From contig NC_135172.1 of assembly GCF_041146795.1 (NCBI RefSeq), forward strand, positions 12,204,137 to 12,268,136: DNA of 64,000 bases, given 5' to 3'. Origin of the DNA: Maylandia zebra. Taxonomy: Eukaryota; Chordata; Actinopteri; Cichliformes; Cichlidae. The translations under genes were made by a program, and so were the position numbers. The stretch's first letter is position 1. Each line of letters starts with the position of its first letter. Under the pieces are notes generated by a model. That model was not told the origin of the DNA and did no database searches. It saw only the letters and a list, made by a program, of their open reading frames with translations. This document shows, piece by piece, positions 11,171 through 58,348 of the stretch.

Positions 11171-11800
11171 TGAACACATTCAGGATGAAGATGGGCCACA
11201 CGTCACGAAGCTGCCAAATGCCTTCATGCTCTATCTCAAAGAGCAGAGGCCAAAGGTCATTGCTGAACTCAACATCCCTGGAAGTGCAGCCGGAAATGCA
11301 GTGGTGGGACAGAGAGTAAGTGTGTAACTCTGCATACAGCCCTTCAGTTCCAGACAGAGGAAGCCTTTGTCGCAGACAGTGAGGAAGAACTGCTGTCAGT
11401 GCTGGAAGAGCTCGACCCCCTCCCCATCACTGCACAGTCTCAGCAGCCCTCACCCACCCCTGCCTCTCCTGTAGATGCCTCTCAAACTGCATCAGTTCAA
11501 CCCCGAGTTGAATTATTTCAAGACCGAGATGAGCCCATCTGTTTTGCTGAAATCCAAGAAGACATGTGGTCAGTGCTTGACTACCTCCCCGTCTCTCAGC
11601 AGTCTAATGTGCTCTCCTCTCCTCATTCACACAACTACTCGACTCCTAAACAAAATCTCATCTGTCCTGCTGATTCCCCTCCATCCAAACTGGCGTCCTC
11701 CCCTGTTGCATTCACTGAATTGCCGTCAACAACCCCCATCTTTTGCCAACTAATGAAAAACAATAATTTCACTATAGACGATTGGACCGATTTCAATTGA
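11171..11800 (+). CDS. HMG-box (TCF/LEF-like) protein, 3' part
   Basis: The first block (11171-11315, after a CACCTGTCAG acceptor) encodes LPNAFMLYLKEQRPKVIAEL and GSAAGNAVVGQR. This is the first half of an HMG box of TCF/LEF or SOX type, a minor-groove DNA-binding fold. After only 32 bases (GTAAGT...CTTCAG) a second block (11348-11800) encodes an acidic, Ser/Pro-rich tail from FQTEEAFVADSEEELLSVLE to FTIDDWTDFN and a stop. AATAAA occurs near 11845. The second half of the box (normally starting at a Trp after GQR) is missing, and a 32-nt intron is unusually short, so the locus may be a processed-down or damaged paralogue. The outer end of the large inverted repeat cuts this exon at 11707; only the last 28 or so codons are copied at the far end of the right arm. 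Confidence 0.55.
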
Positions 11801-14211
11801 ATTAAACTGTTACTCCTGTTATTTCAACATCTGTCTTTGTGTAAATAAATGAAAAAACAAACAAAAGATGCTTCTGTCATAAGTTACAGCAGGATGAAAC
11901 AACCTTCATGTAGTTCTTGTTTTTAACACTGCAAACCTTCTTTAGTTCTTTTGTTTCCTTTCATATTCAGCACACATCTGTCAGTGTCCACTAACTGTCA
12001 GGGAAAAGCCAGATAAAAACACTGTGGGGTCTTTTGGGACACGTGCTCGTTGGGTTTACTCATAGATATCAGAAATGATCTGTTCTGTATTCAAAGGATA
12101 CACGAAGGACGTTTGTATTAAATGCAATATAGCGACTGATCATATGCTGCTTTCTTTGGGGGCTTTTCACCACCATGTTACACAAATCCAGTTTCTAACT
12201 GAAAAGAAAATCCTTCACCATTTTCTAATCAAATTCCCTGGTTTCCCATGTCAGAGATGTCATGGCTGAAAGGATCATCGCATATTGAGCTCAAAGCTAA
12301 ACTCTTGTGTAGGGCCTCTTTCCATGTTGCACCATTCATTTTAAAAAGTCCTGGTAACAAGAGACAGAGGTGACTTGATGTATTACAGTTACTTCCCAAT
12401 TTACAGAAATGATGTGACTTCTGACATTTTCCTAGCAGGAAATGTGCTACTGTGGGACACTGAAAGAATAAACAGCAAGGCACGTTTTGTTTTAATAACT
12501 TTTCTTTACTTCATTTGTATGAACTAGGTTTACCTTACAAAATCTTATACTGTATATAATGTTTTATGTTTAATTCATGTCAATGTCAGCTCGTGTTTAC
12601 TCGGGTGAGCAGTACCGGCCCACAAAGAGAATGCTCTTGGTGGGTTTATGTCGGATGAAGAAGATGAAGGGATGGTCGGCAACAAACTCAGCGGGAATCG
12701 TTATAGAGCGGACTTCCATGTCAACCCCAGTGGCAGCAGCAGCCTCAGCTCCTTCTTCATTTACATCCACCAAAGCCTTGTGGACAACTTTGGACACTAT
12801 CAGGTCATTTGCTGGAGACATTCCTAGTAGATGAAGAGCCCAGAAATCAGTTGTGTTTTATTCTTTAACAGATGATGTTTTGCAGTTTTTGTGCTCTCAA
12901 TATAACTGTATAATTGATTCAGTGTGTCTCATTGGTGCAATATTTCTCACCAGAGAAGTCTCTCTTGTAGATGTCAAAAGCGTTCTCCATTCCCATGTTG
13001 GTCAGGATTTTCTCCAAGTCATACTTCTCCTCCATCTTAAATCGAGGGAGCTTGACATCAACCTCGTTGGGGCTCATCATGTCTGGGCGAGTCCAGTCCA
13101 CAAAGTTCTGATAGGTCAGCTCCTTCTCCAGCTGTGTGGATACAGTGTCACTAGCTTGTCTGATTGAAACTGGACATTAAAGTACTGGTAAGTGCATCTT
13201 ACCTTTTCCAAGCCTGTGGTATCATCTTCTATGTCATTAGGCAGGAATATGAGCATGCTGAGGTCATTTCCTTTATACGGCATCTCAAGAATCTGTCCAG
13301 AAACATTGTTTTTATTTATTACTCCATCAAAGATGATCTGACTTCCTAATCTAGAAATTTAGGCTGATATTTGTAAAAGACAAGTTTTAGATCATGCTGG
13401 TGAAATCCTGTAATAAGCTGAAAGTGATGGATGTTACCTTGCAGTTGGCCTCAGGAATGGTCGCAAAAGGAAATTTACTTTTCTGCTGCATCATCTTCAC
13501 CGGCTTAGTGTCGTTCTGAAAAATAGGGGAGACAAGAGAAATGTTTTTTGTGTTTAGTCTCAAAATGATCTCAAAAAGTTCTGTCATGGTTTTATTCCAG
13601 CCATTGAGTGGATTTGGATGTAGAGCACACGTCACAACACAACTTGTTCTTGTTAGCCGAAGTTTGTGATGTGCTGTTGTTTGAGATTTATTTGAGAACT
13701 TATTGGATATTACATGAATAATAAACTGCATTGCATAACTGCATAAAGTTGGAAAGTGATCGTCCTAAAAGCACGATTTTATCCCCTCAGAGCTCCAGGC
13801 TTTATGTTCTCATTCAGCAAAGTCCACAGCTCGTTTGTAGTATGACAGATCAAAGTATAACTGCACCATCCTATGCTGCCTTTCTGCACTGTTACCTTGT
13901 TCAGTCGAAAATGCACATCAGCAGTCTTCTCCTCCTTAAACTGCGTGTTCCAGCTGCCCTTGAAGTAAATGGCATTCACGAGAACCAGCTTCGTCAGGCT
14001 ACCCACTGCATCCTGGCTTAGCAAGTCCTTGATTTTATCTGGTAAAAAGAATTTATGAAAACTATTAACTATTACCAAAGATGCACTAGTTACTGTACAA
14101 CATCTTCAGCTATAAAATCAGAAAACAGGGCAACAGCAAGATGGTTTTTATTTTAAAAAAAGGGGAAAAAGCTTTATGATCAGTATAACAGGGAACAAAA
14201 AACAAAAATTC

Positions 14212-14440
14212 AAGCGTAGGCTTGAAGCCACTGAGGTGGTTGTTAGCGGGGGTGACGCGATGCTTCTGGTATGCATGAATTAATTAAACAGTCCAATAAC
14301 TCCAGCAGTACTTATCTTGTCCTTTTTGGTCTTTGTTCCAAACATTTTAAGATAAAAGCGCAGCGGTCACAAACGTTTTGCCTTCTTATGATTAACAACA
14401 CACCTGACGCTGATTACGTGCGTCCACCTTAAATACCTTA
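14212..14440. repeat. Interspersed repeat, copy B
   Basis: Related to 3955-4215 (shared GGTATGCATGAATT, CAGTCCAATAACTCCAGC, GCGCAGCGGTCACAAAC) but clearly diverged. It lies in a serpin intron next to an L1-type LINE fragment and is mirrored at about 55615-55843. Confidence 0.6.
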
Positions 14441-14639
14441 CATAAACCTACCATACAGGAACTTAAAAAGGTGGAATCCTCAGTGGTGCTTGGTGCCACA
14501 CCCTCAGGGACTTTAATGTTATATAAAAACACTGACAGCTCAATATCTGCCTCAGTCACTCTCCCTGATCCAGCTGAGTCACCAATAGGAAAAATCTGCT
14601 TTTCACAGGAACTTGGTAACAGCAATAAGAGAATACGTA

Positions 14640-15328
14640 GTTATTCCAAGAAGATATCGTCTCTCTCCCATATATAACATCTTATTGGAACCGATATGTT
14701 CCAGATATCAAGTGGAAGACAGTCTGGATGGTCCCCCATAAATATTTGATTGTAAATAAGGTGAAAGAAGTCTCATTTAAAATTCTACATAAATGTTATC
14801 CAGCCAGTCACTACATGGTCAAATGTAAAAGGGACATAAATACTAATTGTACTTTCTGTGGGGATCATCCAGAAACTGTGACGCATCTTTTTTGGTACTG
14901 TTCTTTTTCACAGAGATTCTGGAAGGAATTTAGCAGGTTTGTTATTGTCCATATTTTAAGGGAGTTTTCTTTACGATGGGAAAATGTTTTATTCTGTTTA
15001 AGTTCCCCAAGAAGTATGAGAAATGTTTTTTATGATGAATTTGTTCATACTTTTAGCTACATTTTTTATCCATAAATGTAAGTTTACTAACAAAACACCA
15101 TATTTCTGTCATTATTTTAAGGATGTGGAAATGTACATACAATCAATATCAGACTCCACCAACACAAAGGCTCTCAAAACAATACATGTATGTGAATTCT
15201 TATAATTGTTACCTTTTTCTTTTACTCTTGGCTTTTTGTGTTCATGTTCTGTTGTTTTGTATACTTCATCTGTTCGTATGTTGTATACTCATTGTTTGTT
15301 AAATAAAGTTTAAAAAAAAAAGAAAAAA
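14640..15328 (+). mobile_element. L1/Tx1-type LINE ORF2 C-terminus
   Basis: The frame encodes VSFKILHKCYPASHYMVKC, TNCTFCGDHPETVTHLFWYC and QRFWKEF, the Cys-rich C-terminal motif (FLH...C..C...ET..HLFW.C...FW) of L1/Tx1-clade LINEs. AATAAAGTTT and an A-rich tail follow at 15301-15328. It is 5'-truncated with no RT domain, in the serpin intron and antisense to it. The mirror copy carries a 4-bp duplication that shifts the frame. Confidence 0.75.
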
Positions 15329-16465
15329 CTTAAAAAGGTTACCTCTAGCGGCAACATGAGGTATCAACCCAAAAATGGCTCCTACAAAAATAATGGGATT
15401 AAGATTGTCTCATTTCCAGCAGGTGGCACCACAGTCCTATAACCCTCATAGAAAGTCCTTGTATCCTATTATTATAGATGGTAGATTTATAAATGGCCTG
15501 TATTTGTATCGCGCTTTTATAAAAACAATGAATGAATTTCCTGCTGCACTTAAGATAATATAAAGATATAGAATCAATAGCAGCCAATCCTAAATGGGCC
15601 TGAAAAATAAAAATATGTTAAAGACACAAGTGATCAAAGTAGAAGTACCCATCACATAATATAATAAGAATAGAAGAATTGGCCTGCTATTTACAGCAAC
15701 ATACTGCTGTGATGGTTTTATTAATAGCATGAAACCAAACAGTAAAACCCAGAGATAGTGCTGCTTAATACTGAATAGAAATTAGACTGGAAGAACTGGA
15801 AACAGAAAATAATGTGGACGGTGGACAATCCGGTAATAATGTCTCAACTGAACACAACACAACTGATCCCCAAGGATTTACAGTGGAGATCATTTAAAGT
15901 TACATTATGCTTACCTTGTGTCTGCTTCTCCACCCAGCTGTTGATGTGGACCCTGGCCTCCTCTGCATTTCCTTTGAAGTCCACAGACTCGAGCTCAGCG
16001 TTGTAATGCTTTTTGGTGCCTTTTAAAAATTCCTGGAATTGTGAAAATAAGTCACTCGAAACAGATTCAACAAACTACGGAGACTTCAATCAAGTTCAGT
16101 CACTGTGTTAAAACATTTTCAGTCCTTTGGATGCAGTTGAAGCTTGAACTAACCAGTCAGCCTTTGTCTAATAAAAGATTAAAGCAAATAGCTTGTTGGA
16201 TGCCAATTTAAGTAGCCAGCATAGAAAAATACACAGATTGTGGGTAAGCTGGTTTGTAACGTTTCGGTTCAGATGGCAGCAGTTTTTGCTGACAAATGTA
16301 AGTTTTAGTATTTCTAAGTATTAATAAATTACTGTTTTACTTCTTTATATATTTCTTTATACTATTTGCAAATATTTTAAAAGTTTAATCTGCTGTGATG
16401 ACTGGAACACAAAGGAGAGAAATGGTGCCTTGTCTCTTGTTATGAACTGTAAATAGCTAAGTGCT

Positions 16466-18199
16466 TAGAGCAGCTGGTCCTAGCACACTTCAAATCCTGT
16501 CTCCCCCCCACCCTGGACCCCCACCAATTTGCATACCGCCAGAACAGGAGCACAGAGGATGCAGTCTCCATCGCACTGCACTCTGTCCTCTCACACCTGG
16601 ACAACAACAACACCTACGCCAGAATGCTGTTTATAGACTTCAGTTCAGCATTCAATACAATCCACCCCTCACAACTCATCAGGAAACTGACAGACCTGGG
16701 CATCAGTTCCCTCATCTGCAAATGGTTACTGGACTTCCTGACCAACCGCCCCCAACATGTCCGGCTGGATAACCGCTGCTCATCTACCATCACAATGAAC
16801 ACCGGTGTACCACAAGGCTGTGTGATGAGCCCTTTCCTCTACTCCCTCTTCACCCACGACTGCAGACCTGCTGATGGTTCCAACACCATCATTAAGTTTG
16901 CAGATGACACCACGGTGATTGGCCTCATCAGTGACAACGATGAGGCCGCCTACAGGGAGGAGGTGGATCGTCTGGCTGAGTGGTGCGACACAAACAACCT
17001 GCTGCTTAACACCGAGAAGACCAAGGAGCTCATCGTGGACTACAGGAGGAATGCTGACCCACATCCACCCATCCACATTAAGGGGACGGCTGTGGAGCGT
17101 GTGAGCAGCTTCAAGTTCCTGGGAGTCCACATCTCCGAGGATCTCACCTGGACGACCAACTGCTCCAAGCTGGTCAAGAAGGCTCACCAGCGCCTCTTCT
17201 TCTTGAGGACTCTGAGGAAGAACCACCTGTCCTCAGACATCCTGGTGAACTTCTATCGCTGCACCATCGAGAGCATCCTGACCAACTGTATAACAGTCTG
17301 GTACGGGAACTGCTCTGCCTCGGACCGGAAGGCGTTGCAGAGGGTCGTGAAAACTGCCCAGCGCATCGCCGGAGCACCACTTCCTGCCATAAAGGACATC
17401 TACAGGAAGCGGTGTCTGAAAAGGGCTGGGAAAATCATCAAAGACCCCAGTCACCCATCACATGGACTCTTCACCCTCCTGCCCTCTGGGAGGCGCCACA
17501 GGAGCCTCCGGACTAAGACCACCAGGTACCGGAACAGCTTCTTCCCCACAGCTGTCAGACTCCTGAACTCTGCCTCCTGACATCTGACCCACGTTAACTC
17601 ATGGACTGAACATACACACACCCACAATGGACAACTGTACCCTCAAACACAATAATAACATGGACTGAACCACCACTCACAACCACTAGCACTTTATATA
17701 GCCTCTGTAGAAACTATCTACACCCTCACTTATCTTAACTGCACTACTGTATAGCTCTGTGTAAATAATCATTCTGTACATTCAATAATCTTTAATCCTA
17801 CAACTGTTTACAACTTGCATAGTTGCCGGGGATTCCCATGATGCATTGAGTTTTTCCTTTCCAGTCACCTTTCTCACTCACTATGCATTAATAGACCTCT
17901 CTGCATTGAATCATATCTGTTATTAACCTCTGTCTCTCTTCCACAGCATGTCTTTCTCCTGTTTTCCTTCTCTCACCCCAACTGGTCGCAGAAGATGGCC
18001 CCGCCCCTCCCTGAGCCTGGTTCTGCTGGAGGTTTCTTCCTGTTAAAGGGGAGTTTTTACTTCCCACTGTCGCCAAAGTGCTTGCTCATAAGGGGTCATA
18101 TGATTGTTGGGTTTTTCTCTGTATCTATGAAGCGCCTTGAGGTGACTTTTGTTGTGATTTGGCGCTATATAAATAAAATTGAATTGAATTGAATTGAAT
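16466..18199 (+). mobile_element. L2-like LINE reverse transcriptase fragment plus retroposon 3' tail
   Basis: The coding part (to 17580) holds RT motif A ([13 protein letters not shown]), motif B ([16 protein letters not shown]), motif C ([10 protein letters not shown]) and a C-terminus with [18 protein letters not shown] and [12 protein letters not shown]. The 5' end (endonuclease and N-terminal RT) is missing, and the frame changes between about 16466 and 16624. Downstream, 17583-18199 is 3' UTR ending in GGCGCTATATAAATAAAATT and (GAATT)n, a tail also seen reversed at 63948-64000. The UTR may belong to a second nested element. It lies between the KIF1 and serpin fragments. Confidence 0.85.
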
Positions 18200-18374
18200 T
18201 ATCTGAGGAAGAAGCAGAGTTGGTTTGTTTCCAGCTGAAATCATCCAGGCTCAGGAATTTGAATCGATCCACATCATTTCTGCTTGAACTAGAGAACATG
18301 AGTGTCGACTTACATTTGGTCTGTGAGACACATGTCATAGTGACAGTATTTGGGTTAATATGGCATTACTCACC

Positions 18375-19669
18375 CTGGTCGCATTTCTTCAATATCAGGC
18401 ACCAAGTTCAGGAACTCGTTCTTTGCAGCCCGCGCAAGGTAGGAGGTCTCCAGAGTGGGAACCATCGGGAAGTTTTCACAGTCTGAGCAGGAGGGACTGG
18501 AGGCACGTGAGCTGTTCTCAGGGGTCCTTTAACACAAATCACACCAAGTTAGAATCAAATAGATAACCTGTCAATAACCGTTTGCAGATCGAGGTCAATG
18601 TTCCTAAAAATATGTTTACTTCTGGCCCATGGAGCCACAGCGCGAGTCCGAGAGAGAGGGGCAGGTAGAGGAAGGGGTGAGGGTGGCACTGCTGAAGCTC
18701 GTCACGGATGGATCACGTCCGATCGGTGAGATGAGAGAAAGCTGAAGTGAAACAACAGCAGGATGAGGTAGACGTCAATATAGGAACTCCCTGATGTGAC
18801 ACAGAAAGGCTATTTTTTTTATTTCTTTGTATTATTTCTCACCTTGCAGTCACTGATGCTGTTCACCAGCTGCTTGTATTCAGTATTGAAGGTGTGTGTC
18901 AGAAGGTGCAGGCACTACAACACAACAGGAACAAGACCGATCAGCTCCGAGCAGAGAAGGAAGAAGACAGCAACAAGAACGCCCACTAAGCCCACGTTTT
19001 TCTCACCTTGGTGGCCAGCTCCTTCTCACGCTTTCAAAGGTGGTGCTGGAGATCTGCGAGGAGACGGAGGTGGATGTGGACAGAGTGCCGGAGCTCACGC
19101 TGGGGGACAGAGACTCACTCAGGGACTTGGTGGTGGGAGCTGTTCCCACGGGAGCCGCCTCTCCCAGAAGGTGACGGGTCTTTTCCACCTGGACGAAAGA
19201 TGGGGGCGAATGTGAGGTGGGGAGAAGAGGGGAGGTTAGTCATGTAAAGTCTGTACTCTAAGAAAAAACTTTTTAGAATAGCACTTTGGTCTTTGAGCTG
19301 AAAAGTCATTTTTCCCTCAATGATATTAAACAGATTTATTTCTTTATGAATCTTTTAAGGCCCCACCTCCTGCAGCTGCTCCATCTTCTCCAGCTCCCAC
19401 TGGTGCTCTAGGATGAGGCTATCTCCTCTGGGCCTCCAGCCGGCCAGGTTCTCCTCTCCACGCACATAAGCCACTGATGTGTCCAGCACCTTCCTCCTCC
19501 TCCTCTGCATCCCTGCTCAGGACATGAGCCCTCATTAGGATGAAGCTCTCCACAGAATTATGATAAAACAGCTGCCGTTCTTTAAACATGTTTCATGGCC
19601 GCTCACCTGGGCTTCCAGTGTCAGACATCTTACACAAGCTCAGCTCGTAGATCCCAGTCACTCGGTTGT
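18375..19669 (-). pseudogene. KIF1-family kinesin tail exons, left copy
   Basis: KIF1 kinesins are plus-end-directed monomeric or dimeric vesicle motors; these exons encode the region before the C-terminal PH domain. Minus-strand exons: 19669-19607 (YELSLCKMSDTGSS), 19512-19367 ([20 protein letters not shown]), 19188-19007, 18914-18843 (CLRLLTHTFNTEYK), 18742-18621 (TLTPSSTCPSLSDS) and 18527-18375 (RAAKNEFLNLVPDIEEMRPG). Splice sites look canonical. The third exon has a one-base frameshift after TTFES relative to the expected REKELATK, so the message would not read through. Motor, FHA and PH parts are absent. The fit is best to KIF1B/KIF1A, from the signature [19 protein letters not shown]. 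Confidence 0.85.
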
Positions 19670-20422
19670 TATAATGAAGCAGAAGTTTTGAACAAGGAAA
19701 CTTTGTAACGAAATGCCAACGACCGCCTGTCTGTTTTCAGGGCTGTATTTGAAGCCATGCTCCAATCAGGCAAAGTTTTAAGTGTTGCACATTTCGATGG
19801 GTTTCTTTCAGCTGACATAGTTTCCATTTGGGTCATGTGGTGTTAGATACCCCAGCGTGTGGTCAGAGGGTGAAGAGCCCGGACGATTAGTGGGATTTTA
19901 GGTGTGGTGTAAAAATGACGCTGCAACTTTAAAAACGTTGTTGCTTTAAGGATTAACGTACAACCATACTTGGGCTGAGTTTGACACTGGTTCTCTTCAG
20001 TAATTAAAATAGCTTTAACACATGATAAGATCAAATGTCAGCTACACTGTGACAGTCGAGGGGCCACACTCAGATATATTTATTCGCTTGTTCTCTTTGT
20101 GTGATAAGAGTTTCCATCTGAATTTAACCCCTGTGTGGGGCTGATCTTTCATTTCATTTTATTTCAAGCTCAGATTCTTTGCCTTTGGCACATTTTCTGT
20201 GACGAGACTTCAAACCATTCCCACCGTCCTTATTAATCAACATGGTGAAGTGATTCTTCGCAAGGTGATGGGATAGGAAGAGTTTCAGAAAATGAGGCCT
20301 TTTGTCTTTATTGGAGAGGTCAGTGCAGACAGGACGGATGGGGGGAAGGCGAGGGGGGAATGACACACAGGAAACGGTGTTGGTCAGACCCAAAGACAGG
20401 CGTGGGCAGTGAGGACTCTCAC

Positions 20423-20464
20423 CTTCAGACTCACTGTCTAATCAGTCTGACAGTGAGTCTGAAG
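20423..20464. repeat. Perfect 16-bp stem-loop
   Basis: CTTCAGACTCACTGTC, a 10-nt loop, then GACAGTGAGTCTGAAG. Perfectly self-complementary and preserved in the mirror arm (49666-49707). No known function recognised. Confidence 0.6.
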
Positions 20465-20491
20465 ACAGAGCAACCCAACACACGTTACTAT

Positions 20492-21000
20492 GTTCATCAT
20501 CATCATCATTGTTTATTTATATAGCACTTTAAAAACACACAAGGCTGACCAAACTGCTGAACAATAGAAACATAATAGATACCATAAGAATAATAAATAC
20601 GATACAATAATAAACATAGCGAAAAACAATAAAATACAAGTCAGTCAACCACTGAGTCAAAAGCCAGTGAATAAAAATGCTTTTTCAATCTGGATTTAAA
20701 AACCAGCACTGATGTCGATTGCCTAATGTGAAGAGGAAGATTATTCCAAAGCTTAGGAGCCACGATAGAGAACGCTCGGTCTCCTCTCAGTTTCAGCCGT
20801 GATTTGGGGACTGAGAGCAACAGCTGCTCAGCTGACCGGAGCGAACGAGTGGGGACATAGGGCTTCAGCAGGTGCCAGACCATTTAAAGATTTAAAAACC
20901 AATAAAAGAACTTGAAAATGAATCCTAAATTCAATTGGAAGCCAGTGCAGGGAGGCCAAGAGTGATGTTATCACTAAGCAGGACATTAAATCAAATTAAT
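20492..21000 (-). mobile_element. LINE ORF2 C-terminal fragment with 3' tail
   Basis: The minus strand encodes ASLHWLPIEFRIHFKVLLLV, then in another frame PTRSLRSAEQLLLSVPKSRL, GDRAFSIVAPKLWNNLPL and FKSRLKKHFY: the conserved C-terminus of L2/CR1-like LINEs. The 3' UTR ends in GTGCTATATAAATAAACAAT and (GAT)n near 20492. 5'-truncated and frameshifted. Confidence 0.8.
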
Positions 21001-21848
21001 GAGACACCAAAACAAGAGCTGGAGCCCAAGACAGCCATGAAGTCACAGTGTACACAAATACACAAGAAACACAGAAACCAGCTGGGTGGATGTGGCTCGG
21101 GAACCTTCTGTTACCTTGAACGTCGGTGTTTTGAACGCTGGCTGCTCCAGTCTGCTTGTATTTGTCCAAGATTTCCCCTCATATCTTGGTTATGGTTATT
21201 TTTTCTTTTATTAAACTGATCACACTCCTGTTCATGAATAGAAAAAAACCCCATCAGTGTATTTTCACTTAAACAAGCAGCTGTTTTTTTTGCATTAAAG
21301 TTATATAAAAATGTAACAGTGCAAATTCCTCGCTGACAGTTTAACCAAAAGGCATTTCCAGTGGAAAGTAGCCGACATATTCTCAGCATAACCATGTATA
21401 ATATCCACAAAACCTGAGAAGGTTGGAGAGAAGGTAGGCGAACTCTGCTGGGATCTGCGTTTAACAAAGTGTCTAAAGACGAAACAAAGAAATCTTTCTG
21501 TAAATGTTCAGATGCACAGACTGGACTGAAAAAGAGTGAAAAAGCAGCTAACGTCCAAAAATAAGAAAACTTTGAAAGAACTCCAAAAAAACCTGGAGAA
21601 CTTTTGCTCAAAAAACAGTTTTGTTTTTTTTAAATTACAAGGCAATCTGACAAAATGTCATCAAATGAGACTCAAGACTTCTGCAGGTCTCTGCCATGAC
21701 TCAATTTTTTTTTCTTAACGGCAGAAACAATTGTTCCTTTTTTACTTTGTTTCTATTTTCTCTTCTTGTTTTTATCTGTTGAACAACAAACAACATTCAT
21801 GCTGATTCACATAATATCCTGTCTCTACTCTCTGGGATTTCCTCGTAG

Positions 21849-35735: not shown

Positions 35736-35751
35736 GACTAACTCAACCATA

Positions 35752-37523: not shown

Positions 37524-37526
37524 GCT

Positions 37527-46486: not shown

Positions 46487-47837
46487 CTGGTGGACTGAGC
46501 CGCCTCACCTTTCACCTGGCTCACGTCACACACCTGGAGAGACTCGACCTCCACCTGTGTTGCCTCACGCGAGATGATCTAGAGGCTCTGAGTCAGTTGC
46601 TACCAATCTCACACGCCGGACACTAATCGCATGCTCGCTGCAGCAGTCATGTGACTCGTTGTTTTTCAGTCCAGGTGCTGCCCTCTCTCACTGCACTGAC
46701 CGAGCTTGATGTGTCATCCAATAAGGAAGTGGGAGGTGTGGTCCACCTGCTGGTCTCCGCCCTCCCTGCGACACAAATGAGGCGGCTGCCATTCAACAGC
46801 TGCTACATGAGCAACGAGTCCTTCACTGCTCTGGGTAACACACACACACACACTTGTTTATTTATAGAAGTTTTCCTTCAAGTCATTCTCCCTGAATACC
46901 TCTTCCACCCTCTAGCCTGAAATGGTGAAAACTTTGTGTTTATGCATCAGCCCTGGCGGTGTCCTATCTGCGCACGGTGGATATTTCCTGGTGTAAAGTG
47001 GTTGGCGGTCACTTGGCGCTCCTGCTGGATGCTCTGCAGCCATCAGTCGTCAGCGAGCTCCGTCTTTGCAGCTGCGAGCTCACCACTGATGACATGCTAC
47101 ATCTGGGTAACTAACACACAATGACATTATACTTTTTCTTTTTTGGTCTGTAGTGGATCATTAGGCTGCATAAATGTATATTAAGACAAGTAAAGCCTGA
47201 AGGAAATTGATATTTCTTTCATTTATTTCATGCTGCCAGCATCTGTAGCTGTCGTATAAAACAAAACAATGAAACTATTCGGTGTTATTTTTGTCTCCAT
47301 CAGAAACATTGTGAACAAAACAGTAAAGTGAACAGGCATAAAGTGATCAGTTATCAATGGGTCCTCTTCCTCTGTGCAGCTGCCGTGTGCAGACGGGGCT
47401 GTCTCTCCTCACTCCGTGCACTGGATCTGTCCTACAACAGCTTGGTGGGAGACAACGGTTGGTGCAGTCTGTTTGCAGCAGGAGGTCTGGGCTCTCTGGA
47501 AGACGTGGATGTCAGTTTGCGACCTTCAACCTCTGCTCCGTGCTCAGCCTGGCTGCCCGCTCTGCTCCGAGCTCTGCCTCAAATGCCGGCGCTGGCTCGA
47601 CTGGCCATGCAGAGGTGGACAGCTGACTGTCAGGAGAGAGAGCAGCTGAGGTACTGTCTGAAAAAGAGGAGCGTCCTGCTGGAAAGGGATCCAGATTTAC
47701 AAGACACATCATCAACATGTAAAGGGAACAGTCAGGAGAGCCTAGAAGAGAGTCAGCCTGAGGAGATTGGAGCGGACCGCACTGGAATTTACTGTCAAAG
47801 AGCGACCCACTTTGTTGCTTTATTATTATTTTTTTAA
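46487..47837 (+). pseudogene. Leucine-rich-repeat protein exons (LRRC31-like), right copy
   Basis: Exons 46487-46591, 46670-46834, 46951-47106 and 47380-47837, with consistent phases. Differences from the left copy include Pro for Leu after RPSTSA and Thr for Ala near the C-terminus. There is no start exon of its own, but it is in frame with the upstream HERC exons. Confidence 0.7.
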
Positions 47838-47984
47838 GTCTCTGTTACCACAAGAAGGTCAGTGTTGACGTCAGCTGCATCACGTCTGATGTAAACTGTG
47901 TCACACGTGATGGTTTCAGGGAATACTGGGAACTTACAGAGTTAAGCACAGCTGGTGTGGGTTATCATATTTGTCGTCTCTCAC

Positions 47985-48281
47985 CTTGGCTGCAGGGTCT
48001 GGGTCTTTCCAATGCAGCAGTCCTAACACTTGAGACACACATGCCGAGAAGTGGGGATACCTGGAAATGGACAAAGGCTTTCAGCAGAGTTTTAAAGCAG
48101 CTATTCAGGAAAAGAGCTGTGAATTATCTGCATACCTTGTTAGGTAATCAGCTATTTTGGGGTTCTTTAACAAATCAACCAAAAGGTCGACTGAGTATTT
48201 TCTCGTCAGAGTACCATCACCGTTCACGATGATGTTGAGCACAAGCTGGAGCGTTTGATGGATGTTCTTTGCATCAAAGAG
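47985..48281 (-). pseudogene. cip2a: CIP2A exon pair, right copy
   Basis: Mirror of 21849-22145: exons 48281-48136 and 48060-47985 on the minus strand. It is antisense to the surrounding LRR and KIF1 fragments. Confidence 0.8.
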
Positions 48282-49129
48282 CTACGAGGAAATCCCAGAG
48301 ATTAGAGACAGGATATTATGTGAATCAGCATGAATGTTGTTTGTTGTTCAACAGATAAAAACAAGAAGAGAAAATAGAAACAAAGTAAAAAAGGAACAAT
48401 TGTTTCTGCCGTTAAGAAAAAAAAATTGAGTCATGGCAGAGACCTGCAGAAGTCTTGAGTCTCATTTGATGACATTTTGTCAGATTGCCTTGTAATTTAA
48501 AAAAAACAAAACTGTTTTTTGAGCAAAAGTTCTCCAGGTTTTTTTGGAGTTCTTTCAAAGTTTTCTTATTTTTGGACGTTAGCTGCTTTTTCACTCTTTT
48601 TCAGTCCAGTCTGTGCATCTGAACATTTACAGAAAGATTTCTTTGTTTCGTCTTTAGACACTTTGTTAAACGCAGATCCCAGCAGAGTTCGCCTACCTTC
48701 TCTCCAACCTTCTCAGGTTTTGTGGATATTATACATGGTTATGCTGAGGATATGTCGGCTACTTTCCACTGGAAATGCCTTTTGGTTAAACTGTCAGCGA
48801 GGAATTTGCACTGTTACATTTTTATATAACTTTAATGCAAAAAAAACAGCTGCTTGTTTAAGTGAAAATACACTGATGGGGTTTTTTTCTATTCATGAAC
48901 AGGAGTGTGATCAGTTTAATAAAAGAAAAAATAACCATAACCAAGATATGAGGGGAAATCTTGGACAAATACAAGCAGACTGGAGCAGCCAGCGTTCAAA
49001 ACACCGACGTTCAAGGTAACAGAAGGTTCCCGAGCCACATCCACCCAGCTGGTTTCTGTGTTTCTTGTGTATTTGTGTACACTGTGACTTCATGGCTGTC
49101 TTGGGCTCCAGCTCTTGTTTTGGTGTCTC

Positions 49130-49638
49130 ATTAATTTGATTTAATGTCCTGCTTAGTGATAACATCACTCTTGGCCTCCCTGCACTGGCTTCCAATTGAA
49201 TTTAGGATTCATTTTAAAGTTCTTTTATTGGTTTTTAAATCTTTAAATGGTCTGGCACCTGCTGAAGCCCTATGTCCCCACTCGTTCGCTCCGGTCAGCT
49301 GAGCAGCTGTTGCTCTCAGTCCCCAAATCACGGCTGAAACTGAGAGGAGACCGAGCGTTCTCTATCGTGGCTCCTAAGCTTTGGAATAATCTTCCTCTTC
49401 ACATTAGGCAATCGACATCAGTGCTGGTTTTTAAATCCAGATTGAAAAAGCATTTTTATTCACTGGCTTTTGACTCAGTGGTTGACTGACTTGTATTTTA
49501 TTGTTTTTCGCTATGTTTATTATTGTATCGTATTTATTATTCTTATGGTATCTATTATGTTTCTATTGTTCAGCAGTTTGGTCAGCCTTGTGTGTTTTTA
49601 AAGTGCTATATAAATAAACAATGATGATGATGATGAAC
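49130..49638 (+). mobile_element. LINE ORF2 C-terminal fragment, right copy
   Basis: Mirror of 20492-21000, ending in (GAT)n. Confidence 0.8.
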
Positions 49639-49665
49639 ATAGTAACGTGTGTTGGGTTGCTCTGT

Positions 49666-49707
49666 CTTCAGACTCACTGTCAGACTGATTAGACAGTGAG
49701 TCTGAAG
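49666..49707. repeat. Perfect 16-bp stem-loop, right copy
   Basis: Mirror of 20423-20464 with an unchanged stem and loop. Confidence 0.6.
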
Positions 49708-50460
49708 GTGAGAGTCCTCACTGCCCACGCCTGTCTTTGGGTCTGACCAACACCGTTTCCTGTGTGTCATTCCCCCCTCGCCTTCCCCCCATCTGTCCTG
49801 TCTGCACTGACCTCTCCAATAAAGACAAAAGGCCTCATTTTCTGAAACTCTTCCTATCCCATCACCTTGCGAAGAATCACTTCACCATGTTGATTAATAA
49901 GGACGGTGGGAATGGTTTGAAGTCTCGTCACAGAAAATGTGCCAAAGGCAAAGAATCTGAGCTTGAAATAAAATGAAATGAAAGATCAGCCCCACACAGG
50001 GGTTAAATTCAGATGGAAACTCTTATCACACAAAGAGAACAAGCGAATAAATATATCGGAGTGTGGCCCCTCGACTGTCACAGTGTAGCTGACATTTGAT
50101 CTTATCATGTGTTAAAGCTATTTTAATTACTGAAGAGAACCAGTGTCAAACTCAGCCCAAGTATGGTTGTACGTTAATCCTTAAAGCAACAACGTTTTTA
50201 AAGTTGCAGCGTCATTTTTACACCACACCTAAAATCCCACTAATCGTCCGGGCTCTTCACCCTATGACCACACGCTGGGGTATCTAACACCACATGACCC
50301 AAATGGAAACTATGTCAGCTGAAAGAAACCCATCGAAATGTGCAACACTTAAAACTTTGCCTGATTGGAGCATGGCTTCAAATACAGCCCTGAAAACAGA
50401 CAGGCGGTCGTTGGCATTTCGTTACAAAGTTTCCTTGTTCAAAACTTCTGCTTCATTATA

Positions 50461-51755
50461 ACAACCGAGTGACTGGGATCTACGAGCTGAGCTTGTGTAA
50501 GATGTCTGACACTGGAAGCTCAGGTGAGCGGCCATGAAACATGTTTAAAGAACGGCAGCTGTTTTATCATAATTCTGTGGAGAGCTTCATCCTAATGAGG
50601 GCTCATGTCCTGAGCAGGGATGCAGAGGAGGAGGAGGAAGGTCCTGGACACATCAGTGGCTTATGTGCGTGGAGAGGAGAACCTGGCCGGCTGGAGGCCC
50701 AGAGGAGATAGCCTCATCCTAGAGCACCAGTGGGAGCTGGAGAAGATGGAGCAGCTGCAGGAGGTGGGGCCTTAAAAGATTCATAAAGAAATAAATCTGT
50801 TTAATATCATTGAGGGAAAAATGACTTTTCAGCTCAAAGACCAAAGTGCTATTCTAAAAAGTTTTTTCTTAGAGTACAGACTTTACATGACTAACCTCCC
50901 CTCTTCTCCCCACCTCACATTCGCCCCCATCTTTCGTCCAGGTGGAAAAGACCCGTCACCTTCTGGGAGAGGCGGCTCCCGTGGGAACAGCTCCCACCAC
51001 CAAGTCCCTGAGTGAGTCTCTGTCCCCCAGCGTGAGCTCCGGCACTCTGTCCACATCCACCTCCGTCTCCTCGCAGATCTCCAGCACCACCTTTGAAAGC
51101 GTGAGAAGGAGCTGGCCACCAAGGTGAGAAAAACGTGGGCTTAGTGGGCGTTCTTGTTGCTGCCTTCTTCCTTCTCTGCTCGGAGCTGATCGGTCTTGTT
51201 CCTGTTGTGTTGTAGTGCCTGCGCCTTCTGACACACACCTTCAATACTGAATACAAGCAGCTGGTGAACAGCATCAGTGACTGCAAGGTGAGAAATAATA
51301 CAAAGAAATAAAAAAATAGCCTTTCTGTGTCACATCAGGGAGTTCCTATATTGACGTCTACCTCATCCTGCTGTTGTTTCACTTCAGCTTTCTCTCATCT
51401 CACCGATCGGACGTGATCCATCCGTGACGAGCTTCAGCAGTGCCACCCTCACCCCTTCCTCTACCTGCCCCTCTCTCTCGGACTCGCGCTGTGGCTCCAT
51501 GGGCCAGAAGTAAACATATTTTTAGGAACATTGACCTCGATCTGCAAACGGTTATTGACAGGTTATCTATTTGATTCTAACTTGGTGTGATTTGTGTTAA
51601 AGGACCCCTGAGAACAGCTCACGTGCCTCCAGTCCCTCCTGCTCAGACTGTGAAAACTTCCCGATGGTTCCCACTCTGGAGACCTCCTACCTTGCGCGGG
51701 CTGCAAAGAACGAGTTCCTGAACTTGGTGCCTGATATTGAAGAAATGCGACCAGG
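50461..51755 (+). pseudogene. KIF1-family kinesin tail exons, right copy
   Basis: Exons about 50461-50523, 50618-50763, 50942-51123, 51216-51287, 51388-51509 and 51603-51755 with canonical splice sites. It shares the one-base frameshift in the third exon with the left copy, so that lesion arose before the arms duplicated or was homogenised. The PH-domain exons expected next are replaced by a LINE tail from 51931. Confidence 0.85.
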
Positions 51756-51930
51756 GTGAGTAATGCCATATTAACCCAAATACTGTCACTATGACATGTG
51801 TCTCACAGACCAAATGTAAGTCGACACTCATGTTCTCTAGTTCAAGCAGAAATGATGTGGATCGATTCAAATTCCTGAGCCTGGATGATTTCAGCTGGAA
51901 ACAAACCAACTCTGCTTCTTCCTCAGATAA

Positions 51931-53664
51931 TTCAATTCAATTCAATTCAATTTTATTTATATAGCGCCAAATCACAACAAAAGTCACCTCAAGGCGCTTC
52001 ATAGATACAGAGAAAAACCCAACAATCATATGACCCCTTATGAGCAAGCACTTTGGCGACAGTGGGAAGTAAAAACTCCCCTTTAACAGGAAGAAACCTC
52101 CAGCAGAACCAGGCTCAGGGAGGGGCGGGGCCATCTTCTGCGACCAGTTGGGGTGAGAGAAGGAAAACAGGAGAAAGACATGCTGTGGAAGAGAGACAGA
52201 GGTTAATAACAGATATGATTCAATGCAGAGAGGTCTATTAATGCATAGTGAGTGAGAAAGGTGACTGGAAAGGAAAAACTCAATGCATCATGGGAATCCC
52301 CGGCAACTATGCAAGTTGTAAACAGTTGTAGGATTAAAGATTATTGAATGTACAGAATGATTATTTACACAGAGCTATACAGTAGTGCAGTTAAGATAAG
52401 TGAGGGTGTAGATAGTTTCTACAGAGGCTATATAAAGTGCTAGTGGTTGTGAGTGGTGGTTCAGTCCATGTTATTATTGTGTTTGAGGGTACAGTTGTCC
52501 ATTGTGGGGGTGTGTATGTTCAGTCCATGAGTTAACGTGGGTCAGATGTCAGGAGGCAGAGTTCAGGAGTCTGACAGCTGTGGGGAAGAAGCTGTTCCGG
52601 TACCTGGTGGTCTTAGTCCGGAGGCTCCTGTGGCGCCTCCCAGAGGGCAGGAGGGTGAAGAGTCCATGTGATGGGTGACTGGGGTCTTTGATGATTTTCC
52701 CAGCCCTTTTCAGACACCGCTTCCTGTAGATGTCCTTTATGGCAGGAAGTGGTGCTCCGGCGATGCGCTGGGCAGTTTTCACGACCCTCTGCAACGCCTT
52801 CCGGTCCGAGGCAGAGCAGTTCCCGTACCAGACTGTTATACAGTTGGTCAGGATGCTCTCGATGGTGCAGCGATAGAAGTTCACCAGGATGTCTGAGGAC
52901 AGGTGGTTCTTCCTCAGAGTCCTCAAGAAGAAGAGGCGCTGGTGAGCCTTCTTGACCAGCTTGGAGCAGTTGGTCGTCCAGGTGAGATCCTCGGAGATGT
53001 GGACTCCCAGGAACTTGAAGCTGCTCACACGCTCCACAGCCGTCCCCTTAATGTGGATGGGTGGATGTGGGTCAGCATTCCTCCTGTAGTCCACGATGAG
53101 CTCCTTGGTCTTCTCGGTGTTAAGCAGCAGGTTGTTTGTGTCGCACCACTCAGCCAGACGATCCACCTCCTCCCTGTAGGCGGCCTCATCGTTGTCACTG
53201 ATGAGGCCAATCACCGTGGTGTCATCTGCAAACTTAATGATGGTGTTGGAACCATCAGCAGGTCTGCAGTCGTGGGTGAAGAGGGAGTAGAGGAAAGGGC
53301 TCATCACACAGCCTTGTGGTACACCGGCGTTCATTGTGATGGTAGATGAGCAGCGGTTATCCAGCCGGACATGTTGGGGGCGGTTGGTCAGGAAGTCCAG
53401 TAACCATTTGCAGATGAGGGAACTGATGCCCAGGTCTGTCAGTTTCCTGATGAGTTGTGAGGGGTGGATTGTATTGAATGCTGAACTGAAGTCTATAAAC
53501 AGCATTCTGGCGTAGGTGTTGTTGTTGTCCAGGTGTGAGAGGACAGAGTGCAGTGCGATGGAGACTGCATCCTCTGTGCTCCTGTTCTGGCGGTATGCAA
53601 ATTGGTGGGGGTCCAGGGTGGGGGGGGAGACAGGATTTGAAGTGTGCTAGGACCAGCTGCTCTA
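51931..53664 (-). mobile_element. L2-like LINE RT fragment, right copy
   Basis: Mirror of 16466-18199; motif B region carries Ala instead of Thr before GVPQG. Confidence 0.85.
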
Positions 53665-54801
53665 AGCACTTAGCTATTTACAGTTCATAACAAGAGACAA
53701 GGCACCATTTCTCTCCTTTGTGTTCCAGTCATCACAGCAGATTAAACTTTTAAAATATTTGCAAATAGTATAAAGAAATATATAAAGAAGTAAAACAATA
53801 ATTTATTAATACTTAGAAATACTAAAACTTACATTTGTCAGCAAAAACTGCTGCCATCTGAACCGAAACGTTACAAACCAGCTTACCCACAATCTGTGTA
53901 TTTTTCTATGCTGGCTACTTAAATTGGCATCCAACAAGCTATTTGCTTTAATCTTTTATTAGACAAAGGCTGACTGGTTAGTTCAAGCTTCAACTGCATC
54001 CAAAGGACTGAAAATGTTTTAACACAGTGACTGAACTTGATTGAAGTCTCCGTAGTTTGTTGAATCTGTTTCGAGTGACTTATTTTCACAATTCCAGGAA
54101 TTTTTAAAAGGCACCAAAAAGCATTACAACGCTGAGCTCGAGTCTGTGGACTTCAAAGGAAATGCAGAGGAGGCCAGGGTCCACATCAACAGCTGGGTGG
54201 AGAAGCAGACACAAGGTAAGCATAATGTAACTTTAAATGATCTCCACTGTAAATCCTTGGGGATCAGTTGTGTTGTGTTCAGTTGAGACATTATTACCGG
54301 ATTGTCCACCGTCCACATTATTTTCTGTTTCCAGTTCTTCCAGTCTAATTTCTATTCAGTATTAAGCAGCACTATCTCTGGGTTTTACTGTTTGGTTTCA
54401 TGCTATTAATAAAACCATCACAGCAGTATGTTGCTGTAAATAGCAGGCCAATTCTTCTATTCTTATTATATTATGTGATGGGTACTTCTACTTTGATCAC
54501 TTGTGTCTTTAACATATTTTTATTTTTCAGGCCCATTTAGGATTGGCTGCTATTGATTCTATATCTTTATATTATCTTAAGTGCAGCAGGAAATTCATTC
54601 ATTGTTTTTATAAAAGCGCGATACAAATACAGGCCATTTATAAATCTACCATCTATAATAATAGGATACAAGGACTTTCTATGAGGGTTATAGGACTGTG
54701 GTGCCACCTGCTGGAAATGAGACAATCTTAATCCCATTATTTTTGTAGGAGCCATTTTTGGGTTGATACCTCATGTTGCCGCTAGAGGTAACCTTTTTAA
54801 G

Positions 54802-55492
54802 TTTTTTCTTTTTTTTTTAAACTTTATTTAACAAACAATGAGTATACAACATACGAACAGATGAAGTATACAAAACAACAGAACATGAACACAAAAAGCC
54901 AAGAGTAAAAGAAAAAGGTAACAATTATAAGAATTCACATACATGTATTGTTTTGAGAGCCTTTGTGTTGGTGGAGTCTGATATTGATTGTATGTACATT
55001 TCCACATCCTTAAAATAATGACAGAAATATGGTGTTTTGTTAGTAAACTTACATTTATGGATAAAAAATGTAGCTAAAAGTATGAACAAATTCATCATAA
55101 AAAACATTTCTCATACTTCTTGGGGAACTTAAACAAACAGAATAAAACATTTTCCCATCGTAAAGAAAACTCCCTTAAAATATGGACAATAACAAACCTG
55201 CTAAATTCCTTCCAGAATCTCTGTGTAAAAGAACAGTACCAAAAAAGATGCGTCACAGTTTCTGGATGATCCCCACAGAAAGTACAATTAGTATTTATGT
55301 CCCTTTTACATTTGACCATGTAGTGACTGGCTGGATAACATTTATGTAGAATTTTAAATGAGACTTCTTTCACCTTATTTACAATCAAATATTTATGGGG
55401 GACCATCCAGACTGTCTTCCACTTGATATCTGGAACATATCGGTTCCAATAAGATGTTATATATGGGAGAGAGACGATATCTTCTTGGAATA
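54802..55492 (-). mobile_element. L1/Tx1-type LINE C-terminus, right copy
   Basis: Mirror of 14640-15328, with a 4-bp GTTT duplication that shifts the frame after LRWENVLFCL. Confidence 0.75.
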
Positions 55493-55614
55493 ACTACGTA
55501 TTCTCTTATTGCTGTTACCAAGTTCCTGTGAAAAGCAGATTTTTCCTATTGGTGACTCAGCTGGATCAGGGAGAGTGACTGAGGCAGATATTGAGCTGTA
55601 TGGTAGGTTTATGT

Positions 55615-55843
55615 AAGGTATTTAAGGTGGACGCACGTAATCAGCGTCAGGTGTGTTGTTAATCATAAGAAGGCAAAACGTTTGTGACCGCTGCGCTTTT
55701 ATCTTAAAATGTTTGGAACAAAGACCAAAAAGGACAAGATAAGTACTGCTGGAGTTATTGGACTGTTTAATTAATTCATGCATACCAGAAGCATCGCGTC
55801 ACCCCCGCTAACAACCACCTCAGTGGCTTCAAGCCTACGCTTG
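55615..55843. repeat. Interspersed repeat, copy B mirror
   Basis: Mirror of 14212-14440, next to the 80-bp deletion point. Confidence 0.6.
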
Positions 55844-58254
55844 AATTTTTGTTTTTTGTTCCCTGTTATACTGATCATAAAGCTTTTTCCCCCTTTTTTT
55901 AAAATAAAAACCTTCTTGCTGTTGCCCTGTTTTCTGATTTTATAGCTGAAGATGTTGTACAGTAACTAGTGCATCTTTGGTAATAGTTAATAGTTTTCAT
56001 AAATCCTTTTTACCAGATAAAATCAAGGACTTGCTAAGCCAGGATGCAGTGGGTAGCCTGACGAAGCTGGTTCTCGTGAATGCCATTTACTTCAAGGGCA
56101 GCTGGAACACGCAGTTTAAGGAGGAGAAGACTGCTGATGTGCATTTTCGACTGAACAAGGTAACAGTGCAGAAAGGCAGCATAGGATGGTGCAGTTATAC
56201 TTTGATCTGTCATACTACAAACGAGCTGTGGACTTTGCTGAATGAGAACATAAAGCCTGGAGCTCTGAGGGGATAAAATCGTGCTTTTAGGACGATCACT
56301 TTCCAACTTTATGCAGTTATGCAATGCAGTTTATTATTCATGTAATATCCAATAAGTTCTCAAATAAATCTCAAACAACAGCACATCACAAACTTCGGCT
56401 AACAAGAACAAGTTGTGTTGTGACGTGTGCTCTACATCCAAATCCACTCAATGGCTGGAATAAAACCATGACAGAACTTTTTGAGATCATTTTGAGACTA
56501 AACACAAAAAACATTTCTCTTGTCTCCCCTATTTTTCAGAACGACACTAAGCCGGTGAAGATGATGCAGCAGAAAAGTAAATTTCCTTTTGCGACCATTC
56601 CTGAGGCCAACTGCAAGGTAACATCCATCACTTTCAGCTTATTACAGGATTTCACCAGCATGATCTAAAACTTGTCTTTTACAAATATCAGCCTAAATTT
56701 CTAGATTAGGAAGTCAGATCATCTTTGATGGAGTAATAAATAAAAACAATGTTTCTGGACAGATTCTTGAGATGCCGTATAAAGGAAATGACCTCAGCAT
56801 GCTCATATTCCTGCCTAATGACATAGAAGATGATACCACAGGCTTGGAAAAGGTAAGATGCACTTACCAGTACTTTAATGTCCAGTTTCAATCAGACAAG
56901 CTAGTGACACTGTATCCACACAGCTGGAGAAGGAGCTGACCTATCAGAACTTTGTGGACTGGACTCGCCCAGACATGATGAGCCCCAACGAGGTTGATGT
57001 CAAGCTCCCTCGATTTAAGATGGAGGAGAAGTATGACTTGGAGAAAATCCTGACCAACATGGGAATGGAGAACGCTTTTGACATCTACAAGAGAGACTTC
57101 TCTGGTGAGAAATATTGCACCAATGAGACACACTGAATCAATTATACAGTTATATTGAGAGCACAAAAACTGCAAAACATCATCTGGTAAAGAAAAAAAC
57201 ACAACTGATTTCTGGGCTCTTCATCTACTAGGAATGTCTCCAGCAAATGACCTGATAGTGTCCAAAGTTGTCCACAAGGCTTTGGTGGATGTAAATGAAG
57301 AAGGAGCTGAGGCTGCTGCTGCCACTGGGGTTGACATGGAAGTCCGCTCTATAACGATTCCCGCTGAGTTTGTTGCCGACCATCCCTTCATCTTCTTCAT
57401 CCGACATAAACCCACCAAGAGCATTCTCTTTGTGGGCCGGTACTGCTCACCCGAGTAAACACGAGCTGACATTGACATGAATTAAACATAAAACATTATA
57501 TACAGTATAAGATTTTGTAAGGTAAACCTAGTTCATACAAATGAAGTAAACAAAAGTTATTAAAACAAAACGTGCCTTGCTGTTTATTCTTTCAGTGTCC
57601 CACAGTAGCACATTTCCTGCTAGGAAAATGTCAGAAGTCACATCATTTCTGTAAATTGGGAAGTAACTGTAATACATCAAGTCACCTCTGTCTCTTGTTA
57701 CCAGGACTTTTTAAAATGAATGGTGCAACATGGAAAGAGGCCCTACACAAGAGTTTAGCTTTGAGCTCAATATGCGATGATCCTTTCAGCCATGACATCT
57801 CTGACATGGGAAACCAGGGAATTTGATTAGAAAATGGTGAAGGATTTTCTTTTCAGTTAGAAACTGGATTTGTGTAACATGGTGGTGAAAAGCCCCCAAA
57901 GAAAGCAGCATATGATCAGTCGCTATATTGCATTTAATACAAACGTCCTTCGTGTATCCTTTGAATACAGAACAGATCATTTCTGATATCTATGAGTAAA
58001 CCCAACGAGCACGTGTCCCAAAAGACCCCACAGTGTTTTTATCTGGCTTTTCCCTGACAGTTAGTGGACACTGACAGATGTGTGCTGAATATGAAAGGAA
58101 ACAAAAGAACTAAAGAAGGTTTGCAGTGTTAAAAACAAGAACTACATGAAGGTTGTTTCATCCTGCTGTAACTTATGACAGAAGCATCTTTTGTTTGTTT
58201 TTTCATTTATTTACACAAAGACAGATGTTGAAATAACAGGAGTAACAGTTTAAT

Positions 58255-58348
58255 TCAATTGAAATCGGTCCAATCGTCTATAGTGAAATTATTGTTTTTC
58301 ATTAGTTGGCAAAAGATGGGGGTTGTTGACGGCAATTCAGTGAATGCA
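58255..58348 (-). pseudogene. Truncated end of the HMG-box gene's last exon
   Basis: The minus strand encodes FTELPSTTPIFCQLMKNNNF and TIDDWTDFN with a stop, identical to the end of the gene at 11171-11800. Upstream of codon AFTEL the sequence is unrelated, marking the outer breakpoint. Confidence 0.9.

What the first reader, a model, noticed from the sequence alone, without database searches (positions are those of the whole stretch)
11707..58348. Giant, nearly identical inverted repeat: 19.9-kb arms around a 6.9-kb spacer
Every feature of 11.7-31.6 kb recurs in reverse order and orientation at 38.5-58.3 kb, with coordinate sums constant at 70130 (inner) or 70055 (outer). The arms have separate indels and point differences, so they are two real copies rather than one sequence entered twice. 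Such palindromes are known from sex chromosomes, B chromosomes and amplified loci.
Basis: partly seen in the sequence, partly recalled or inferred. Interest (0 to 1): 0.85.

Follow-up and report, generated by a model that had tools for sequence, protein, structure and literature searches.

The report
Array of nested giant DNA palindromes
A 47-kb stretch of what looks like a fish chromosome is a near-perfect mirror image of itself, and it is one of about eight such mirrors packed into 1.2 million bases; this kind of recombination-prone amplified DNA is known, but this cluster lets its rearrangements be read directly.

Summary
In detail: 11707-31622 and 38508-58348 are inverted copies, 31 substitutions and 5 indels apart, around a 6.9-kb spacer. 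It is not alone. The window is C6:12.204-12.268 Mb of a 962-Mb genome; C6:11.90-13.10 Mb holds 8 full spacers and 18 inner-arm copies of at least 5.2 kb. A 5.8-kb flank repeats three times at 169,532-bp steps and once reversed. Beside one of these flanks the spacer is inverted, which I read as recombination between arms. Arms of the palindromes compared are, overall, no closer to their partners than to other arms. A C3 relative runs straight across the left boundary; the right boundary is the new joint, in two forms. Content is mostly gene fragments and transposons plus an intact 355-aa coiled-coil ORF, one of a large family in tandem units. Sex- or B-linkage is untested. Verdict: a new member of a known kind, a palindromic segmental-duplication array. 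Assembly error in the identical tandem units is not excluded.

The parts
11707..31622 (+). left arm of the palindrome
31623..38507 (+). spacer; 8 full copies (query 31700-38400) on C6, 3 in + and 5 in - orientation on the contig
38508..58348 (-). right arm of the palindrome
14455..14534 (+). 80 bp missing from the right arm; the same gap is seen in the arms at C6:12.427-12.432 and 12.978-12.982 Mb, which adjoin the same outer flank
28952..30016 (+). intact single-exon 355-aa coiled-coil ORF, left arm copy
   Evidence: no Pfam match at E 0.01; 'coiled-coil' is my reading of the sequence
40114..41178 (-). the same 355-aa ORF, right arm copy
   Evidence: C6:12244250-12245314 -
32055..32645 (+). 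197-aa open frame with C2H2 zinc fingers in the spacer, open in 8 of 8 full spacer copies and in the C3 relative
23648..25290 (-). HECT-domain gene fragment (two exon-like pieces; no HECT C-lobe cysteine motif seen by one loose motif search)
35752..37530 (-). third copy of the HECT fragment, inside the spacer
44840..46482 (+). HECT fragment, right arm copy
26374..27593 (-). stretch from a glutathione-synthetase gene region, joined in antisense at a breakpoint at 26377 (4 bp shared); 10 of 10 fetched loci outside the palindromes lack this join
   Evidence: gene named from the matching locus L040, sent in another frame, gave 0 hits
42537..43756 (+). the same stretch in the right arm
   Evidence: L040 match
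30511..30546 (+). 36 bp that reappear, reversed, at the right spacer-arm joint (38470-38505)
38300..38473 (+). end of a dispersed repeat (listed 99-100% copies on 9 contigs besides C6 stop here) forming the right end of the spacer
38470..38507 (-). new inverted joint between spacer and right arm, longer form (3 of 8 full-spacer palindromes); 5 of 8 have the shorter form
58349..64000 (+). right outer flank, recurring at C6:12092804, 12262336 (the window) and 12431868, 169,532 bp apart, and reversed at 12972230
16453..17577 (+). reverse transcriptase fragment in the left arm
34412..35542 (-). reverse transcriptase fragment in the spacer, within a repeat found on many contigs

Best explanation
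This is one unit of a young, palindromic segmental-duplication (ampliconic) array of about 1.2 Mb. Step 1 (inferred): an inverted copy of an already mosaic ~20-kb duplicon was joined to the far end of a spacer, where the end of a dispersed repeat meets antisense LINE-like sequence with 4 shared bases, as expected of template switching or fold-back repair. Step 2 (shown in the assembly): the whole palindrome was multiplied, partly as 169.5-kb tandem units and partly as a mirrored copy. Step 3 (pattern shown, mechanism inferred): homologous recombination between copies now turns spacers round and mixes variants across the array. The arms carry mostly gene fragments and transposons. Any function would rest on the coiled-coil ORF or the zinc-finger ORF, and this is unproven.
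For: Arms 99.8% identical with private differences. 8 full spacers and 18 arm copies of at least 5.2 kb on C6. A 5.8-kb outer flank lies at 12092804, 12262336 and 12431868, exactly 169,532 bp apart, and reversed at 12972230. Beside the first of these the spacer is '-', beside the next two '+', and beside the reversed one '-', so the first palindrome is inverted inside a conserved flank. A short left-type flank (339 bp) suggests the same at 12.585 and 12.662 Mb. Of ten 2:2 sites (8 in P1/P6 over 7.6 kb, 2 in P1/P3 over 6.3 kb) three pair the arms of one palindrome, and all three possible splits occur among P1/P6. C3:53.035-53.039 Mb is colinear with 29700-33194 at 94.7% across the left boundary, so only the right boundary is new. 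Two joint forms share the repeat-end/LINE seam.
Against: No reads were available: tandem units identical in the stretches compared (equal scores) could be an assembly duplication. Spacer orientation could also reflect rearrangement of whole blocks with new flanks. The inverted palindrome also has the other joint form and lacks the 80-bp gap in its flank-side arm, so its history is not a single step. In the inner segment both 2:2 sites (2 of 2) do pair partner arms, and the inner 4.3 kb of the window's arms are identical, which fits some partner-to-partner conversion there. Mixed splits could include recurrent mutation, though this is unlikely at about 0.2% divergence.
Confidence: 0.75

Rival explanations
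1. Partial assembly artefact: palindromes are real, but the exact 169.5-kb tandem units and some orientations come from mis-resolved repeats or haplotype duplication.
For: The window palindrome and its +169,532-bp copy show zero differences over the stretches compared (9.7 kb, 7.6 kb) and equal bit scores.
Against: The third in-register unit differs (inverted spacer, 99.4% over the 8.3-kb spacer region, other joint form), and the other palindromes compared differ at several sites, so most copies are not echoes of one sequence.
Confidence: 0.2
2. Sex-linked or B-derived ampliconic region, where palindromes preserve fertility genes by arm-to-arm gene conversion.
For: Architecture resembles mammalian sex-chromosome palindromes; an intact ORF is kept in the arms; the inner 4.3 kb of the arms are identical.
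Against: Arms are not preferentially alike within a palindrome over the outer segment. The sequence lies inside a 45.27-Mb contig, with related blocks on C1, C2, C7, C9, C18, C20 and C22. Neither point excludes sex-linkage; sex and karyotype are unknown.
Confidence: 0.1
3. A very large mobile element whose copies carry the arms to many chromosomes.
For: Blocks 99-100% identical on several contigs share apparent ends at window 26377 and 11759.
Against: The shared end at 26377 is not an element end: 9 of 10 fetched loci outside the palindromes (7 on other contigs, 3 on C6) hold the same sequence beyond it, and the tenth (L039, C20) aligns with them past it. Beyond 11759, six of the copies pick up the same sequence again within about 230 bp. 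I did not compare the far ends of the whole blocks.
Confidence: 0.07

Closest known systems
Human Y palindrome P6 (PMC3723533; abstract and section list seen)
   Same: Large inverted repeats, arms over 99% identical, spacer inversions by recombination between arms
   Different: By that abstract human Y palindrome arms exceed 99.9% through gene conversion and inversions are rare; here arms are 99.8% alike, overall not closest to their partners in the palindromes compared, and one (perhaps three) of eight spacers are inverted; sex-linkage unknown
[quoted passage not shown] PMC10766183; abstract and section list seen)
   Same: Inverted joints at short shared sequence, followed by amplification
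   Different: Shown in yeast for inverted triplications; here origins and intermediates are unknown and the joint is between a repeat end and LINE-like sequence with 4 shared bases
Segmental duplications / low-copy-repeat hubs with inverted blocks (recalled general knowledge)
   Same: Mosaic duplicons, gene fragments, intra- and interchromosomal copies, recombination-prone
   Different: The palindrome itself is the repeated unit, nested in tandem and mirrored larger units
Willow sex-chromosome palindromes (PMC7023750; search listing with start of abstract only)
   Same: Complex palindromic repeats outside mammals
   Different: That case is a plant sex chromosome; here linkage is unknown

Membership tests
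Segmental-duplication (ampliconic) array | Blocks of at least 1 kb at 90% identity or more, in several copies | tested here: met
   8 full spacer and 18 arm copies on C6, further blocks on other contigs
Segmental-duplication (ampliconic) array | Mosaic of segments from different places | tested here: met
   breakpoint at 26377, C3-colinear centre, repeat-end joint
Sex-chromosome-type palindrome | Arms over 99% identical around a spacer | tested here: met
   99.8%
Sex-chromosome-type palindrome | Arms kept alike by exchange with their own partner | tested here: not met
   3 of 10 two-two sites pair arms of one palindrome (1 of 8 in the outer segment, 2 of 2 in the inner, so the inner part is undecided); P1R is closest to P6L; 3 of 8 palindromes compared
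Sex-chromosome-type palindrome | Spacer inversions between copies | tested here: met
   inverted at 12.066 Mb against an in-register 5.8-kb flank; weaker evidence (339-bp flank) at 12.585 and 12.662 Mb
Sex-chromosome-type palindrome | Linkage to a sex chromosome | not testable with these tools
   no sexes, reads or organism name
Sex-chromosome-type palindrome | Intact germline-expressed genes in the arms | tested here: inconclusive
   coiled-coil ORF open in 19 of 19 listed C6-array copies (a protein search, which favours intact copies); expression unknown
B chromosome | Sequence on a dispensable extra chromosome | not testable with these tools
   no karyotype or depth; the contig is 45.27 Mb long

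The most novel reading that the evidence does not exclude
The array is amplified because of the coiled-coil gene. A family of open frames (114 candidates scored, on at least 14 contigs), often in 2.6-2.9-kb gene-bearing tandem repeats, may be a selfish or strongly dosage-selected gene family. In the C6 palindromes it would have acquired an amplification machine, with inverted arms, that keeps its copies both numerous and intact.
Probability: 0.12. Interest if true: 0.75.

Novelty: new member of a known kind. Interest (0 to 1): 0.42.

Why it matters
The best-studied large palindromes lie on mammalian sex chromosomes (general knowledge). Here eight related palindromes lie in one contig with both joint forms, in-register tandem copies, an inverted spacer and an unrearranged relative of the centre on another contig. 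Formation, spacer inversion and spread of variants can therefore be ordered from sequence, and tested by typing individuals. It also ties such an amplicon to a large family of open coiled-coil frames of unknown role.

Tried and rejected
A mobile-element reading of the shared end at 26377 was dropped when copies outside the palindromes proved to continue past it. A simple 'arms converge by arm-to-arm conversion' reading was dropped for the outer segment; the inner segment is undecided. Literature searches for cichlid or fish palindromic amplicons, for palindrome inversions and for coding macrosatellites in fish listed no paper that by title or start of abstract describes this array or the coiled-coil repeat; only the top 10-20 rows of each were shown, and only two papers were opened (abstract and section list). 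A PDB search with one relative of the coiled-coil protein (from L044) gave 0 hits. The frame sent was the wrong one for the glutathione-synthetase piece and gave 0 hits. The LRR reading of 22296-23503 (-) stays weak: Pfam scores are below cut-off or absent. Purifying selection on the coiled-coil ORF is not firm: for the 10 closest pairs omega is 0.80, Fisher p = 0.24; the mean over 21 sequences is 0.59 (L058 was cut short at its 5' end and kept in); the window type gives 0.35-0.46 against L043-L049 and 0.57 against its near twin L050. These sequences came from a protein search, which favours intact copies. The organism group (teleost, perhaps a cichlid) is my guess from contig sizes and gene content, recalled, from no call.
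Full report
OBSERVATION. Self-comparison of the window gives two long inverted matches: 14535-31622 with 55599-38508 (99.813%) and 11707-14458 with 58348-55596 (99.782%). Aligned arm to arm there are 31 substitutions and 5 indels, the largest an 80-bp gap in the right arm. The last substitution is at 27297, so the inner 4.3 kb are identical.

SETTING. The window is C6:12204137-12268136 of a genome of 962,127,851 bases in 63 contigs. Querying pieces of the window against that genome shows 8 full spacer copies and 18 copies (at least 5.2 kb) of the inner arm 25300-31600, all within C6:11.90-13.10 Mb. The 89 hits in that span that I transcribed cover 401,586 bases of 1.20 Mb. This is a lower bound: only the best candidates are scored by the tool, and 16401-17699, 31601-31699 and 38401-58199 were not in these queries. 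Matches under about 300 bp, the hits, hits on C6 outside the span (for example 7.17 and 15.17-15.22 Mb) and hits on other contigs were left out of the count.

ORDER IN THE ARRAY. The right outer flank 58200-64000 recurs complete at 12092804, 12262336 (the window) and 12431868, each 169,532 bp from the next, and reversed at 12972230. The palindrome beside 12431868 is identical to the window's in what was compared: 0 differences in 9.7 kb and in 7.6 kb, with equal scores. The reversed one mirrors the window about C6 ~12.620 Mb: sums of 25,240,366, 25,240,370 and 25,240,429 come from three separate segments (hits; centre). Because any two palindromes share an inversion centre, it is these outer segments, not the arms, that carry the point.

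SPACER INVERSION. Relative to that flank the spacer has one orientation in the palindromes at 12.236, 12.405 and 12.997 Mb and the opposite at 12.066 Mb. The last is the in-register partner of the window palindrome in the neighbouring tandem unit. Using the short left-type flank (11000-11338) instead, the palindromes at 12.585 and 12.662 Mb are also inverted, and those at 11.959 and 12.744 Mb are not. Recombination between the arms is the simplest cause. Against it, the 12.066-Mb palindrome also has the other joint form and lacks the 80-bp gap in its flank-side arm, so more than one event separates it from the window's.

EXCHANGE BETWEEN COPIES. For 17700-25300 I compared both arms of the window palindrome (P1) and of the one at 12.997 Mb (P6): substitutions P1L-P1R 20, P6L-P6R 18, P1R-P6L 11, P1L-P6L 17, P1R-P6R 17, P1L-P6R 21. 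Of 8 two-two sites, 1 pairs the arms of one palindrome, 4 pair P1L with P6R and 3 pair P1L with P6L. No single tree fits without exchange or recurrent mutation. For 25300-31600 (P1 and the palindrome at 12.744 Mb, P3) 2 of 2 such sites pair arms of one palindrome (gapped columns left out). So there is no overall excess of arm-to-partner likeness, but the inner segment may behave differently.

THE JOINTS. A relative on C3 (53.035-53.039 Mb) is colinear with 29700-33194 at 94.7%, passing through the left arm-spacer boundary at 31622. The left boundary is therefore old and the right boundary (38508) is the new inverted joint. The spacer ends there with the end of a repeat whose listed 99-100% copies on 9 other contigs stop at 38473, overlapping by 4 bases (38470-38473) with the reverse of LINE-like arm sequence that starts at 30546. 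In 5 of 8 palindromes (L004-L008) the arm simply runs on from there. In 3 of 8 (L001-L003) 36 bp follow before the sequence restarts at 31622. Whether the longer form gained 1.1 kb or the shorter lost it through the 36-bp direct repeat is open. A further breakpoint inside the arms, at 26377, joins a stretch of a glutathione-synthetase gene region in antisense. In loci outside the palindromes (9 of 10 fetched with an identical continuation, the tenth, L039, aligning past it) the sequence continues otherwise, and at C6:7.17 Mb the same stretch lies about 4 kb downstream in the opposite orientation (gene identity from L040).

CONTENT. Arms and spacer hold reverse-transcriptase fragments, HECT-domain exons without a visible catalytic C-lobe (one loose motif search), possible LRR pieces (below Pfam cut-offs), a 197-aa C2H2 open frame open in 8 of 8 full spacers, and a 355-aa coiled-coil ORF open in the 19 copies listed for the C6 array and in 4 on C9.

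THE COILED-COIL FAMILY. The protein search reported 205 matches from 114 scored of 766 candidates, and not all matches were listed. Listed places lie on at least 14 contigs, and listed rows show stops at two places only (C12:29306023 and C17:10247322). Many lie in tandem arrays of 2.6-2.9 kb (3.2 kb at C9:12.54 Mb). Of the fetched array units, L048 is 92-97% alike to L046, L047 and L049 in pieces that span the unit, outside the ORF too; the palindrome's own type matches these at 79-95% in pieces and L050 at about 99%. Selection on the frame is suggested between the palindrome type and seven others (omega 0.35-0.46) but not for closest pairs (0.80, p = 0.24), and the sample was chosen by protein similarity.

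JUDGEMENT. The mechanism that best fits is inverted joining at repeat sequence, then amplification of the palindrome, then recombination among copies. Inversion and conversion between palindrome arms, and inverted amplification by template switching, are each known (PMC3723533 and PMC10766183, abstracts seen). The combination in one contig is unusually readable. Function is unproven; most content looks like debris.

Noticed in passing
window 28952-30016; relatives e.g. L043-L050, L054-L065: A large family of open single-exon coiled-coil ORFs of about 320-355 aa, often in tandem units of 2.6-2.9 kb, on at least 14 contigs; no Pfam match for the window member and no PDB match for one relative.
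   Followed up: partly
window 9467-9548 and 10124-10195 (-): tRNA-Ser and tRNA-Gly genes in the left flank.
   Followed up: no
window 1-11706; C1:32.94-33.03, C9:9.68-9.77 and 11.75-12.16, C22:22.156 Mb: Parts of the left flank recur at 99-100% on C1, C9 and C22, so the duplicon family links several contigs (12 candidates scored of 11165).
   Followed up: partly
window 7798-8850 (-): Retroelement RNase H domain in the left flank; described only.
   Followed up: no
L053 (C3:53034001-53040800): Unrearranged relative of the palindrome centre; its zinc-finger frame is open, but one cysteine of the palindrome version reads glycine.
   Followed up: partly
C6:12.046-12.061 Mb and 12.730-12.738 Mb: Left arms interrupted relative to the window: an insertion of about 665 bp with a 5-bp overlap at 12.735 Mb, and about 10 kb between listed arm pieces at 12.051-12.061 Mb.
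   Followed up: no
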